DNA of 64,000 nt from Ignavibacteriales bacterium (GTDB lineage Bacteria > Bacteroidota > Ignavibacteria > Ignavibacteriales > SURF-24), in NCBI GenBank assembly GCA_026390815.1, contig JAPLFH010000054.1, positions 62,001 to 126,000 on the forward strand, read 5' to 3'. Position 1 is the first letter of the stretch. Each line of letters opens with the position of its first letter. The notes below the pieces were generated by a model. It searched no databases, was not told where the DNA came from, and saw nothing but the letters and a program-made list of their open reading frames with translations. Both the position numbers and the translations under genes were made by a program. Below, piece after piece: positions 7,812 to 21,827 of the stretch.

Positions 7812-10100
7812 TTATTTTACAACCGAATGATTCTGTATTCTAAGCCACTTATCAATTTTTTCCAGATAGTACTTTAGACTGAATGGTTTGTAAATAATAT
7901 CATCCATACCCGCAGATAAAAACTTATCTGCTTCTTCTTTTAATGCAACCGCTGTAATAACAATAATCGGAATATTCTTATATCTGACATCTATCTCTCT
8001 AATTGAATTTGTAGCTTCAAATCCATCCATCTCGGGCATTACAATATCCATTGCAATTAAATCATATCTGCTGCCTTTGGCTAAAGTTAATGCCTCCCTC
8101 CCATTTTTAGCAGTGGTTACATTATAACCGGCATCCATAAGTATTTTTGCCTGAAAAGAATTATTAATTTCATTGTCTTCTACTATTAAAACATAATACC
8201 TGCTTCGCAATAACTTTAATTCCTCAATCGAGGCAGAGGAGTGTGAGATTTTTTCTTCATAATTATCAGGTTTTTTTATCAGTAAATCTTTTCTCAATTT
8301 AAATTTAGCCGAAAAGAAAAAGTTACTTCCTTTACCTTCTTCACTTTCTACATAAATATCTCCACCCATTAAATGGATAAATTCTTTACAAATCCTTAAA
8401 CCTAAACCGGTACCTCCGTATATTCTTTTATATGAGCTGTCTACCTGGGAAAAAGGTTTGAACAAAAGATCTAATTTATTTTTTGGTATACCAATTCCTT
8501 CATCTTTAACTGATGAGAGTATAAAAACGTGTCCATTTTGCATTTCATTAAGAGAAATATTAATTGCAATTTTTCCTTTAAGAGTAAATTTGATTGCATT
8601 ACTTAATAAATTGGCAAATATCTGTCTTAGGCGAACAGGATCGCCAATTAGAAGAAGAGGAACATCATCGGCAATGTTGCAGTTTATTTTTAAAGATTTC
8701 TCATCAGCTAAAGAAGATACAATGGAAATCGATTCATCCAATACTTCCCTTAGACTAAAATCAATTTCTTCTAATTCCATTCTTCCGGCTTCAATTTTAG
8801 AGATGTCCAGAATGTTATTAATAATATCTAAAAGTGAGGAAGCTGCACTTCGCGCTCTGGAAACGAATTGCTTTAATTCTTCCGGACTTTCATATGCATC
8901 TTGCTCAACTAATTCAAGGTAGCCAAGCACTCCGTTCATTGGTGTTCTAATTTCGTGGCTCATATTTGCCAAAAAAGTACTTTTAGCATCGCTTGCTTTT
9001 AATGCTTCTTTTGCAAGTCGATCAGATTTATTTTTTTCAATTCTTAACTCATCTTCTACAAGACGTCGTTCCCGTTCAAGATAAACTTCTTTTGTAATAT
9101 CGTGCAGATTTCCTTCACAATAGTATTCCTGAGTTTCTTCATCAATCATTAATTTATTATTTAAGGAAACAATTATTTCATTTCCGTCTTTCTTCTTTAA
9201 ATTAATTCTATAATTTTTAACTTCTCCCTGATCTTTACAGAGATTGAATAGAATACGTTTATCCTCAGGTTTAATATAAAGGTCATTTTCAACATTTATA
9301 TTTGAAAGTTCTTCCATCGAACTGTATCCAAGCATATTAACTAATGCCGGATTTGAAATTATAAATTTTCCATTATATTCCGTCTGAAAGATACCTTCCG
9401 CAGAATTATCGAATAAGGAATGAAATTTCCTTTCTGAAATTTCTATCCTGAATGATTTTTCAGCAAGATCAATTCTCATTTTAAAATTTACTGCGCTGGC
9501 AACAATGGAAAGCATGCCAAGGAATAAAATAAAGATTATTGATTCAAAAATATTTGGGATGAAGTAGATGGTGGCATTGTTAAGAAAAATGGCTGAAGAA
9601 AAGACCAGGTTGTAATAAATGGCTACAACTATTTGGTTCTTTACTTCCCAACTTAAAAACAATGCTGATGTAAATATTATTAAGCCGGCAATATGGGAAT
9701 TAAATTGAAGCGTAGTTGGGATCAGATAGATCATTATTGCCGATACAAGCACAATAGTAAGCAAAAGTAGGTGGACAAGTATTACTCGGTTATCCTTTTT
9801 GTGGAAAAAAAATGAATATGCCAAAACCCCAAATCCAATTAAAGTTTGTGTTAACCGTACTAAATATATTTGAGTTGCATGATTAGCAAAATATTTAACT
9901 TCAAATATTAGAGCAAATATACCGGCTATAGTAACCAGCATCGAAATAACTTTTAAGGGGGAAATTAATAGTTTTTCTAATTCGTCCTTAACACGTTCGT
10001 ATCTTTTGGAAGAGAAAGGAAGTTCTATTTTATAGATATAATTAGCAAAGGAACTATTCACCTTATTCATTAACATCCCTGCGTTGTTTTCGAAGTCCAA
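7812..10100 (-). CDS. Membrane hybrid sensor histidine kinase/response regulator
   Basis: 762 residues. Residues 48-205 form six or seven hydrophobic segments (a MASE-like membrane sensor). A PAS domain at about 225-340 (FDNSAEGIFQTEYNGKFIISNP) is followed by a short coiled coil. HisKA has the phospho-acceptor His382 in NMSHEIRTPMNG. The ATPase domain shows N box LLSNAIKF (Asn501), G1 DEGIGIP and G2 GGTGLGL. A C-terminal receiver has the acidic pair E641/D642, phospho-acceptor Asp685 in MDIVMPEMDG, Thr716 and Lys738. All catalytic residues are present, so it should be an active hybrid kinase. No output regulator lies next to it, so the phosphorelay partner is elsewhere. Confidence 0.92.
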   Translation of the reverse strand: MDFENNAGMLMNKVNSSFANYIYKIELPFSSKRYERVKDELEKLLISPLKVISMLVTIAGIFALIFEVKYFANHATQIYLVRLTQTLIGFGVLAYSFFFHKKDNRVILVHLLLLTIVLVSAIMIYLIPTTLQFNSHIAGLIIFTSALFLSWEVKNQIVVAIYYNLVFSSAIFLNNATIYFIPNIFESIIFILFLGMLSIVASAVNFKMRIDLAEKSFRIEISERKFHSLFDNSAEGIFQTEYNGKFIISNPALVNMLGYSSMEELSNINVENDLYIKPEDKRILFNLCKDQGEVKNYRINLKKKDGNEIIVSLNNKLMIDEETQEYYCEGNLHDITKEVYLERERRLVEDELRIEKNKSDRLAKEALKASDAKSTFLANMSHEIRTPMNGVLGYLELVEQDAYESPEELKQFVSRARSAASSLLDIINNILDISKIEAGRMELEEIDFSLREVLDESISIVSSLADEKSLKINCNIADDVPLLLIGDPVRLRQIFANLLSNAIKFTLKGKIAINISLNEMQNGHVFILSSVKDEGIGIPKNKLDLLFKPFSQVDSSYKRIYGGTGLGLRICKEFIHLMGGDIYVESEEGKGSNFFFSAKFKLRKDLLIKKPDNYEEKISHSSASIEELKLLRSRYYVLIVEDNEINNSFQAKILMDAGYNVTTAKNGREALTLAKGSRYDLIAMDIVMPEMDGFEATNSIREIDVRYKNIPIIVITAVALKEEADKFLSAGMDDIIYKPFSLKYYLEKIDKWLRIQNHSVVK

Positions 10101-19350: not shown

Positions 19351-19569
19351 TTGCTCAAATACTTTTGCCGTTTTGCAATGATTTTAAGAACTAACTACAT
19401 AGCTGGTTCTGGGCACCGGAAGAGAGGAGGTTCGAGAATTATTTATTATTGGCATTCAGTAAAAGAAATAATTTTAATGCTCTTAATTTATCCAAAGAGT
19501 GTTCAAGATGATTTGACAGATGAACAACTGAAAATATTAAAGAAAGTGTTGGAGGAAGAAATAAAATGA
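19351..19569 (+). pseudogene. Decayed HigB/RelE-type toxin
   Basis: The C-terminal part (KRGGSRIIYYWHSVKEIILM, then YPKSVQDDLTDEQLKIL) matches the end of HigB2-type RelE toxins. It sits exactly where the toxin should be: its stop overlaps the antitoxin ATG in ATGA. Before it, only IAGSG and a short degenerate stretch remain. Compared with the usual form, the roughly 12-residue segment between GSG and KRGG that carries conserved basic residues is missing, as are most of the first 50 residues. The open frame (TTG 19351) is therefore a remnant, probably without ribonuclease activity. I found no intact N-terminus in the other frames upstream. Confidence 0.65.
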
Positions 19570-19859
19570 ATGATAAATTATTTAATGAATTACTTACAAG
19601 TATAAAACAAGGTGGTGAAATCTTACACGGCTCTAGAAAAGCAAAACGTGTTTTTAATTTTGATGATCCAGATGTTAAAACAATAAGAGAACATTATGGT
19701 TTATCGCAAGATAAATTTGCTAAGCTGCTTGGAATAAGTGCTGGAACCTTGCGGAATTGGGAACAAGGTAGAAGAAAACCAGATGGTCCAGCAAGAGTAT
19801 TACTTTGCGTAGCAGCTAAACATCCAGATGCAATTCTTGATTCTCTTTATAGTTCCTAA
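19566..19859 (+). CDS. HTH antitoxin, HigA/NadS type
   Basis: 97 residues. After a short N-terminal arm (FNELLTSIKQGGEILHGSRK) comes an XRE-type helix-turn-helix (IREHYGLSQDKFAKLLGISA, then GTLRNWEQGRRKPDGPA), the standard layout of antitoxins paired with HigB/RelE toxins. It should bind DNA and repress its own operon. The protein is intact although the partner toxin is decayed, so it is now an orphan antitoxin. The start codon overlaps the toxin stop by 4 nt, the usual coupling in this family. Confidence 0.85.
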   Translation: MNDKLFNELLTSIKQGGEILHGSRKAKRVFNFDDPDVKTIREHYGLSQDKFAKLLGISAGTLRNWEQGRRKPDGPARVLLCVAAKHPDAILDSLYSS

Positions 19860-19901: not shown

Positions 19902-20046
19902 CTGTCAAGGTCCACGAGCCTGTCCGAGAACTAGTATTGCAAGAATAAAAATCCAATAAGAGGGGGTTATAAATTATTTAAATGCAATATTGTGAAAATT
20001 AATTTAACAAATCTAAGTTCTCGGACAGACTCCCACACTTTGACAG
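19902..20046. repeat. Palindrome 1, split by MITE
   Basis: CTGTCAAGGT (19902-19911) and ACTTTGACAG (20037-20046) form a 10-bp stem (one G-T pair) once the inserted element is removed. The loop is CCAC, present twice (19912-19915 and 20033-20036) as the target duplication. Confidence 0.8.
19916..20032. mobile_element. 117-bp MITE related to the adjacent IS
   Basis: The left end GAGCCTGTCCGAGAACTA (19916-19933) and right end AAGTTCTCGGACAGACTC (20015-20032) are 18-bp inverted repeats with two mismatches. The left end is identical to that of the IS at 20158. It has no coding capacity, and it is flanked by the 4-bp duplication CCAC. It is therefore a non-autonomous element that the neighbouring transposase could mobilise. 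Confidence 0.85.
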
Positions 20047-20157
20047 AGATAACTTTAATTGATACTAAAAGTGAGATAGTGGTGTAGATAAAATTCAATC
20101 CACTAATTTTATAAAAATAATTCCGCTAGCTGGATGAACAATCCTGTCAAGGAATGG

Positions 20158-21781
20158 GAGCCTGTCCGAGAACTAATGCAAATATATAAAAGTATTAATA
20201 TATTTTGGTAGCAAAAATCGTGAGCTCCAAAAATGAAATTTCGTCCATACCAGCAACACCAAGTAATAATGTTTCCAAATAATCTGGAAGAACTTATCCC
20301 TGAAAATCATTTGATTAGAATAATTGATTTAATTGTTGAACAACTTGATTTTAAAAAATTATATAATAGTTATAGTGAAGAAGGACAACCTGGGTACCAC
20401 CCAATGATGTTGGTAAAAATATTATTATATGGCTATTCAGTGGGGGTAAGGAGTTCAAGAAAAATTGCGGAGAAATTATTAAGTGATATTTACTTTATGT
20501 ATCTGGCCGGAATGCAGAAACCGGACTTCAGGACAATAAGTGACTTCAGGAAAAACAAAAAGGAATACCTGATAGAATATTTTAAGCAGGTACTTCAGAT
20601 ATGTAAACGTATGGGTTTATTTTCACTAGGGCATGTAGCAATAGATGGGACAAAGATAGAAGCAAATTCATCAAGAAAAATGATGTTGGATAAAGATGAT
20701 CTCTTAAGACTTGAAAGCAATGTTGAGGAAAAGATACGCCATATAATCGAATGTGCAGATAAAATAGATAAAGAAGAGGATAAAAAATACGGGGAAGACA
20801 AAAGAGGGGAGGAACTTCCAGAAGAACTATCAGGCAAGGAGAAACTCTTAGAAAAGATAAAACAGGCAAAGAAACATCTTGAGGAAAATAATTTAAAGAG
20901 AGTAAGCCTAACAGATCCGGAATCAAGAATAATGCTGACTAATAATAGGGGTACTGATATATGCTATAATGTTCAAGCAGCTATAGATAGTGAACATCAG
21001 GTAATATTAGCATGTAAAGCATCGAGTAAAGAAGATGATCATGGTAATTTAATTCCAGTATATGAAGAAGTTGTTCAGAATGCAGGAGAAAAACCGAAAG
21101 AAGTATCTGCCGATGCAGGATACCAAAGTGGAAGAATCTATAATTATTTGGAAAAGAATAAAATAGATGCGTATCTGCCTGATTGTAAAATAAGCGCTGA
21201 GACGGATGAATCGGGTAAAGAAATAATCGGGAAATTTGATAGAAGGAAGTTTATATATAACGCAATTGCTGACACTTATACTTGTCCAAATGAGAAGCAG
21301 ATGAAATTTAAGAAAAATGATAAACGTAATGGAGTAAAGTTCAAAATATATAAAGGTCAATCATGTAAAGACTGCAAACTTAGAAGAGAGTGCATAAGTA
21401 AGCAAACTGCGAAGTTCAGAGAGATAAATATATATGAAAACGATAAGTTTAAGACTGAAATGCGGAATAAACTATTATCTACTGAGGGAAGAATAAAGTA
21501 TAAGAAAAGAATGCTCATAGAGGCTGTCTTTGCACATCTAAAAAGAACAATGTTGTTCAGACAGTTCTTGCTTCGCGGAATTGAAAAAACCAATTGTGAG
21601 TTGAGTTTACTTTGTACTGCTTACAATATTAAGAAATTATGGAAACAGTTAAGTCTGGAAACTATATAATGCCAGATATTAATTTTTCGTAAGAGAAATA
21701 AAATATCCAAAAATTTTAATCTGGTAATACTAAAAAATTACTTTTTTATTTAACTAAAAAAGGTAGTTCTCGGACAGGCTC
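20158..21781 (+). mobile_element. IS1182-type insertion sequence, complete
   Basis: A 1624-bp element with perfect 18-bp terminal inverted repeats: GAGCCTGTCCGAGAACTA (20158-20175) and its complement TAGTTCTCGGACAGGCTC (21764-21781). It is flanked by the direct duplication ATGG and carries one intact transposase gene. Intact ends, target duplication and open frame indicate a recent, potentially active insertion. Confidence 0.93.
20233..21669 (+). CDS. IS1182-family DDE transposase
   Basis: A 478-residue full-length transposase. The N-terminal DUF772-like domain (PYQQHQVIMFPNNLEELIPE, then GYHPMMLVKILLYGYSVGVR and SDFRKN) is followed by the DDE core, with Asp138 in AIDGTKIEANSS, Asp294 in SADAGYQSG and Glu430 in EAVFAHLKR. 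A CKDCKLRREC zinc-like knuckle lies before the last acidic residue, as in this family. There are no frameshifts. Codon use is more A-rich than in the neighbours, fitting horizontal origin. It presumably also acts on the 117-bp MITE with the same ends. Confidence 0.93.
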   Translation: MKFRPYQQHQVIMFPNNLEELIPENHLIRIIDLIVEQLDFKKLYNSYSEEGQPGYHPMMLVKILLYGYSVGVRSSRKIAEKLLSDIYFMYLAGMQKPDFRTISDFRKNKKEYLIEYFKQVLQICKRMGLFSLGHVAIDGTKIEANSSRKMMLDKDDLLRLESNVEEKIRHIIECADKIDKEEDKKYGEDKRGEELPEELSGKEKLLEKIKQAKKHLEENNLKRVSLTDPESRIMLTNNRGTDICYNVQAAIDSEHQVILACKASSKEDDHGNLIPVYEEVVQNAGEKPKEVSADAGYQSGRIYNYLEKNKIDAYLPDCKISAETDESGKEIIGKFDRRKFIYNAIADTYTCPNEKQMKFKKNDKRNGVKFKIYKGQSCKDCKLRRECISKQTAKFREINIYENDKFKTEMRNKLLSTEGRIKYKKRMLIEAVFAHLKRTMLFRQFLLRGIEKTNCELSLLCTAYNIKKLWKQLSLETI

Positions 21782-21827
21782 ATGGTCCTTGACAGCCAGG
21801 GAACAGACCACAAGGGTTAGGATATTG

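What the first reader, a model, noticed from the sequence alone, without database searches (positions are those of the whole stretch)
19902..21795. IS1182-type element and a MITE each inserted exactly in the tetraloop of a palindrome
Removing the IS (20158-21781) restores CTGTCAAGGA-ATGG-TCCTTGACAG, a perfect 10-bp stem with a 4-nt loop. Removing the MITE (19916-20032) restores CTGTCAAGGT-CCAC-ACTTTGACAG, the same stem with one G-T pair. In both cases the duplicated target is precisely the four loop bases, although the loop sequences differ (ATGG, CCAC). Two independent insertions at the same structural position argue that this transposase recognises the hairpin or cruciform and cuts at its loop. 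Insertion into palindromic repeats is known for some other IS families; I am not aware of an exact loop-duplication rule for this one.
Basis: partly seen in the sequence, partly recalled or inferred. Interest (0 to 1): 0.85.

Follow-up and report, generated by a model that had tools for sequence, protein, structure and literature searches.

The report
IS1182 elements landing in hairpin loops
A jumping gene and its miniature copies insert exactly into the four-base loop of a repeated hairpin-forming DNA sequence, duplicating just that loop; relatives in Pseudomonas do the same in unrelated hairpins with four- or five-base loops, which suggests that this enzyme group finds its targets by DNA shape as well as by sequence.

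Summary
The genome holds one IS1182-family IS and seven 117-bp MITEs with the same ends. All eight lie at the centre of a palindrome. In six, the 4-bp target duplication is exactly the tetraloop; the other two have palindromic arms but unequal loops, probably recombinant copies.

The palindromes are not part of the element. They belong to a REP-like family (CTGTCAMGGW-NTGG-WCCKTGACAG, with compensatory arm changes). Empty copies occur in this genome and in another genus that lacks the MITE. Other MITEs with the same ends, in other genera of the class, sit in the same kind of palindrome, with one counterexample. Because arms and loop are conserved, the two window cases cannot separate shape recognition from sequence recognition; for this element sequence clearly matters.

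Relatives help separate them. A second IS1182 in the same genome duplicated the TGAA loop of an unrelated palindrome. ISPpu20-like elements in Pseudomonas plasmids sit in seven unrelated terminator hairpins; in six the duplication equals the loop, whether 4 or 5 nt, and natural empty sites exist for five. Other IS1182 members do not follow the rule. Hairpin targeting is published for IS1272, and loop-only duplication was proposed there as a model; this is a natural example.

The parts
19902..19911 (+). left arm of the target palindrome holding the MITE (CTGTCAAGGT)
19912..19915 (+). target duplication copy 1 = loop (CCAC)
19916..20032 (+). 117-bp MITE with the IS ends (GAGCCTGTCCGAGAACTA...AGTTCTCGGACAGACTC)
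   Evidence: 7 copies in the genome, 90-100% identical
20033..20036 (+). target duplication copy 2 = loop (CCAC)
20037..20046 (+). right arm of the palindrome holding the MITE (ACTTTGACAG)
20144..20153 (+). left arm of the target palindrome holding the IS (CTGTCAAGGA)
20154..20157 (+). target duplication copy 1 = loop (ATGG)
20158..21781 (+). IS1182-family insertion sequence, 1,624 bp, 18-bp terminal inverted repeats
20233..21669 (+). transposase gene, 478 aa (DUF772 + DDE_Tnp_1_6; NF033551 transpos_IS1182 424 bits, cut-off 270)
21782..21785 (+). target duplication copy 2 = loop (ATGG)
21786..21795 (+). right arm of the palindrome holding the IS (TCCTTGACAG)

Best explanation
An IS1182-family IS (DDE transposase) and its non-autonomous MITEs use members of a REP-like palindrome family as targets. 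Both strands are cut at the 5' edge of the four loop bases, so filling in duplicates exactly the loop. Shown: the family of the transposase, shared ends, position in the palindrome, duplication = loop, and existence of the palindromes without the element. Inferred: the transposase acts on the palindrome while its hairpins are extruded (cruciform or single-stranded hairpin), joining each 3' end of the element to the 5' side of each loop, which is why the stagger equals the loop. For this group the transposase also reads sequence (conserved NTGG loop and GGW/WCC neck). In the related ISPpu20-like group it accepts terminator hairpins with unrelated arms and loops.
For: Eight of eight copies in the genome lie in the palindrome family; six have duplication = 4-nt loop, with 9-10 of 10 pairs. 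Empty members of the family in G000, and nine in G004, another genus of the same family without the MITE. The arms of 25 sites (empty plus reconstructed) covary: 94% of cells paired, 6 of 10 pairs with changes on both sides, covariation 0.373 against 0.124 shuffled, 0/500 shuffles as high. MITEs with the same ends in other genomes of the class, with loop duplications CCAT, GTGG, CCAC, GTGG, ATGG in the same kind of palindrome. A second IS1182 in the genome (32% identity) duplicated the TGAA loop of an unrelated palindrome, CCCCTCCA-TGAA-TGGCGGGG (sequence); four empty copies of that palindrome exist. ISPpu20-like elements (about 30% identity to the window transposase): GGTA (4), ATATT, CAAGT, TCACT, TTAAT, GTAAT (5) each equal the loop between perfect 7-12-bp arms. 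Natural empty sites carry a single loop copy, and joined-flank matches exist for two more sites.
Against: No natural empty site of the window's own two insertions is held; they are reconstructed in silico. In two of eight copies the loops differ between the sides (C31 CCAT/TTGG, C46 GCAT/ATGA), which needs recombination or decay. L198 (G654) has a CTAG duplication in non-palindromic DNA, and L203 has loops differing by one base. In L111 the loop is 3 nt and the duplication is 4. Conserved arms and loop in this element's targets fit plain duplex recognition. Nothing here observes cruciform extrusion or cleavage.
Confidence: 0.66

Rival explanations
1. The transposase dimer recognises the palindromic REP-like sequence as ordinary double-stranded DNA (dyad-symmetric half-sites plus an NTGG/CCAN core) and cuts with a fixed stagger of about 4 bp at the dyad axis. 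The loop equals the duplication only because the repeat has a 4-nt centre.
For: All eight copies are in one small repeat family with a conserved loop and neck, although many other hairpins exist (about 20 GC-rich 10-bp/4-nt hairpins in 850 kb). Other IS1182 members (L100, L104, L105, L107) have 4-bp duplications centred on a weak dyad, CYGCT-N10-AGCGG, with no hairpin.
Against: In ISPpu20-like relatives seven sites share neither arms nor loop, and the duplication is 4 or 5 bp, equal to the loop in six. The target arms of the window's element vary by compensatory changes while insertion position stays fixed.
Confidence: 0.3
2. The palindrome arms belong to the mobile element (a larger unit that moves with its arms), so the loop duplication is an illusion.
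For: The arms are similar at all insertions in the genome.
Against: Empty palindromes without the element in G000 and nine in G004, which lacks the MITE; loops differ between copies but agree across the two sides of a copy; natural empty sites exist for the Pseudomonas relatives.
Confidence: 0.02
3. Chance coincidence, or a repeat or assembly artefact.
For: The genome is a draft of 59 contigs.
Against: Background of such centres is 1.24e-4 per position; eight of eight copies on five contigs; the same pattern in other genomes.
Confidence: 0.01

Closest known systems
IS1272 / TnSha1 (IS1182 family, staphylococci)
   Same: Same IS family; targets are stem-loops of varied sequence (PMC5678879, PMC4923244). 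Fig. 13 of PMC5678879 draws a 'pathway c' in which 3' ends join at the 5' side of the loops and the loop is duplicated.
   Different: IS1272 replaces the whole stem-loop and makes no target duplication; here the stem stays and the loop is duplicated. The window's element also keeps to one palindrome family.
ISPpu20-like IS1182 elements (Pseudomonas plasmids)
   Same: Same family (about 30% identity); duplication = hairpin loop at six of seven distinct sites.
   Different: Targets are unrelated terminator hairpins with 4-5-nt loops, not one REP family; ends are CAGNCTGTGTGAAAAC.
IS1397 and ISKpn1 (IS3 family) in PU/REP sequences of enterobacteria
   Same: Insertion inside REP palindromes; target choice attributed to the transposase (quoted in PMC1525189).
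   Different: Another transposase family; exact loop position and duplication lengths are from memory and were not checked here, because the primary papers are not held.
ISRm22 and other REP-targeting IS (Tobes and Pareja 2006)
   Same: Insertion at the palindromy axis of a REP; some copies have mismatched direct repeats explained by recombination, like C31 and C46 here (PMC1525189).
   Different: That survey names five families (IS3, IS110, IS4, IS256, IS5) and not IS1182, and states no loop-duplication rule in the passages read.

Membership tests
IS1182 family | transposase over the curated cut-off of NF033551 (transpos_IS1182) | tested here: met
   424.2 bits, cut-off 270; Pfam DUF772 and DDE_Tnp_1_6
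IS1182 family | single transposase ORF between short terminal inverted repeats, total about 1.3-1.9 kb (size range from memory) | tested here: met
   1,624 bp, 478-aa ORF, 18-bp ends identical
IS1272-type stem-loop replacement | stem-loop deleted and no target duplication | tested here: not met
   both arms present and loop duplicated at the window sites
REP-like target family | dispersed intergenic palindromes with covarying arms, present without the IS | tested here: met
   empty copies in G000 and G004; covariation 0.373 against 0.124 shuffled
REP proper (RAYT-linked) | Y1 (TnpA-REP) gene flanked by the same palindromes, high copy number | tested here: inconclusive
   Y1_Tnp genes exist in the genome, but none of the five examined has this palindrome within its locus; only about a dozen copies were found in G000
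MITE of this IS | same terminal repeats and same target duplication as the IS, no coding capacity | tested here: met
   18 bp identical at the left end, 16 of 17 at the right; 117 bp; same loop duplication

The most novel reading that the evidence does not exclude
A clade of DDE transposases in the IS1182 family integrates into extruded hairpin loops, and the size of the loop sets the length of the target duplication: the loop-duplication branch that was only drawn as a model for IS1272, now with natural examples and empty sites in two distant element groups.
Probability: 0.5. Interest if true: 0.7.

Novelty: new variant of a known kind. Interest (0 to 1): 0.56.

Why it matters
Most DDE transposases cut linear duplex with a fixed stagger. 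If the stagger here is set by a hairpin loop, transposition would depend on cruciform or single-stranded DNA (supercoiling, transcription, replication), and these elements would settle harmlessly in REPs and terminators. The ISPpu20-like set, with 4- and 5-nt loops and natural empty sites, makes the question testable in the laboratory. The rule also helps to find element ends and MITEs in genomes.

Tried and rejected
Exact-arm search CTGTCAAGG-N{1,12}-CCTTGACAG gave nothing, because empty copies vary; a looser pattern found them. Integron attC was considered because flanks at C31 carry GTTGNNCAAC repeats; the gene context is ordinary chromosomal genes and no core sites fit, so it was dropped by inspection. 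RAYT origin of the palindromes was not shown. Close homologues of the transposase in the genome contigs and viral contigs collections were few or none. A family-wide rule was rejected: G347 copies have AACGTCA as part of the element and no loop duplication; G188 and G304 elements are flanked by A/T tracts; proteobacterial L100, L104, L105, L107 have 4-bp duplications in weak dyads. L114, an end fragment beside an effector gene of a plant pathogen, was left unanalysed. The Siguier reviews and an IS1397 paper are not held, ISfinder could not be consulted, and a search for ISPpu20 in papers found none.

Full report
What is there. The IS (20158-21781) and the MITE (19916-20032) have the ends and flanks stated. 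Removing each leaves CTGTCAAGGA-ATGG-TCCTTGACAG and CTGTCAAGGT-CCAC-ACTTTGACAG; the duplicated bases are exactly the four central ones. The 478-aa transposase scores 424 bits against the curated IS1182 model, cut-off 270. MITE and IS share 18 bp at the left end exactly and 16 of 17 at the right.

All copies in the genome. The genome (4.52 Mb, 59 contigs) has one IS and seven MITEs, one of them decayed. Sites, arm-loop|loop-arm: IS CTGTCAAGGA ATGG|ATGG TCCTTGACAG; C54 CTGTCAAGGT CCAC|CCAC ACTTTGACAG; C15 CTGTCAAGGT GTGG|GTGG ACCTTGACAG; C15 second copy CTGTCAAGGT GTGG|GTGG TCCTTGACAG; C32 CTGTCACGGA TTGG|TTGG TCCGTGACAG; C32 second copy CTGTCAAGAA CCAT|CCAT TCCTTGACAG; C31 CAGTCACGGT CCAT|TTGG TCCGTGACAG; C46 (decayed) GCGTCACCGA GCAT|ATGA TCCGTGACAA. 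Six of eight have duplication = loop. In C31 both sides look like the same half of the repeat in opposite orientation, which fits recombination between two insertions (inference); Tobes and Pareja describe such hybrids for ISRm22 (PMC1525189).

The palindromes are older than the insertions. Empty relatives occur in G000 (CAGTCACGGT-CCAC-ACCGTGACTG at C32:54546; CTGTCAAGGT-GTGG-ACTTTGACAG at C32:93194; more distant ones at C6, C31 and C53). G004, a genus of the same family without the MITE, has nine empty ones, some perfect (CTGTCAAGGT-ATGG-ACCTTGACAG; CTGTCGAGGA-ATGG-TCCTCGACAG with a compensatory change). Over 25 sites the arms covary far above shuffles (94% of cells paired; covariation 0.373 against 0.124), while the centre is nearly always NTGG in one orientation. 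This is a REP-like family; no link to a Y1 transposase was found.

The same ends elsewhere. The exact 17-base end occurs in ten other genomes of the class, with none for the reversed control in any listed genome. Reading their flanks gives different MITEs of 97-152 bp. Those with both ends and a matching loop duplication are L194 CTGTCATGAA[CCAT]TCCTTGACAG, L201 CGATCATGGA[GTGG]TCCATGACCT, L204 CAGTCAAGGA[CCAC]TCCTTGACTG, L206 GTGTCGTGGA[GTGG]TCCATAACAT and L207 CTGTCAAGGA[ATGG]TTTTTGACTG. L203 has perfect arms but loops CCAT and CCAC. L198 has a CTAG duplication without a palindrome. So this group targets the NTGG palindrome across the class, nearly always.

Shape or sequence? In 850 kb of this genome there are 105 ten-bp/4-nt palindromes with at most one mismatch, 20 of them GC-rich, yet all eight insertions are in this one family. 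Sequence therefore matters for this element. But the second IS1182 of the genome (C5, 32% identity) duplicated TGAA in CCCCTCCA-TGAA-TGGCGGGG, the centre of another palindrome family with four empty copies. And ISPpu20-like elements on Pseudomonas plasmids sit in seven unrelated hairpins: AGAAAGGAGCC[GGTA]GGCTCCTTTCT; AGGGCCC[ATATT]GGGCCCT; AAACCCGCC[CAAGT]GGCGGGTTT; AAAAAGCCCGGC[TCACT]GCCGGGCTTTTT; AAAAACCCGCC[TTAAT]GGCGGGTTTTT (ISPpu20 itself, pWW53); AAAGGCCCGC[GTAAT]GCGGGCCTTT; and AAAATGGGCGC[CATG]GGCGCCCATTTT, where the loop is 3 nt and the duplication 4. Two copies about 10% divergent occupy the ATATT hairpin in different plasmids (L110, L112). Other plasmids hold the GGTA, ATATT and CATG sites empty with a single central copy, read directly (L180-L183). 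Joined-flank queries match one empty record at 98.3% for CAAGT and many at 100% for TCACT. In ATATT the outer A and T could pair, leaving 3 nt, so its loop length depends on that pair.

Mechanism. Shown: position, duplication, target family, empty sites. Inferred: each 3' end joins at the 5' edge of a loop in the two opposite hairpins of a cruciform, so repair duplicates the loop. This is pathway c of Wan et al. 2017 (PMC5678879), proposed beside the replacement pathway they found for IS1272. The rival is dyad recognition of linear DNA with a stagger of 4-5 bp; it explains the window as well but the ISPpu20-like set less well.

Generality and novelty. The rule is not family-wide: G347, G188, G304 and several proteobacterial elements do otherwise. 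Hairpin targeting in IS1182 is known (PMC5678879, PMC4923244, and the Siguier review they cite). REP targeting is known in other families (PMC1525189). The exact loop duplication in two IS1182 groups, with a stagger that follows the loop, was not found in the papers available; ISfinder could not be consulted.

Noticed in passing
G000:C5:27724-29097 (L017): Second IS1182 member, 32% identical, with a TGAA loop duplication in CCCCTCCA-TGAA-TGGCGGGG; four empty CCCC[AG]YCA-TGAA-TGRYGGGG palindromes exist in the genome.
   Followed up: partly
G000:C31:1941-2057 and C46:113018-113134: MITE copies whose two flanking loops differ (CCAT/TTGG; GCAT/ATGA) although the arms are palindromic; likely recombinant or decayed insertions.
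   Followed up: partly
G000:C15:8458-8574 and 9612-9728 (L022): Two MITEs in opposite orientation about 1.1 kb apart in related intergenic repeats (84% over 119 bp of flank).
   Followed up: no
G353:C9:42648-43961 (L158): IS1182 element flanked on each side by a complete small hairpin, GAACTAC-TCC-GTAGTTC on the left and GAACTAC-GGA-GTAGTTC on the right: whole stem-loop on both sides with the loop flipped.
   Followed up: no
G347:C1 three copies (L148-L150): IS1182 copies with AACGTCA inside both ends and a conserved right flank (C.CGCTACAAGCAG-like), no target duplication: another sequence-specific mode in the family.
   Followed up: partly
L100, L104, L105, L107: Proteobacterial IS1182 elements with 4-bp duplications at the centre of CYGCT-N10-AGCGG-like dyads, not hairpins.
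   Followed up: partly
window 20120-20143 and G000:C32:94358-94424: A 67-bp repeat at 88% identity, with a CCCGCTAGCGGG palindrome, flanks the IS target here and a MITE target on C32, so the target palindrome sits in a larger dispersed repeat.
   Followed up: no
window 19566-19859: 97-aa helix-turn-helix protein resembling a HigA-type antitoxin just upstream of the MITE; a similar stretch (75% over 136 bp) lies near the C31 MITE.
   Followed up: no
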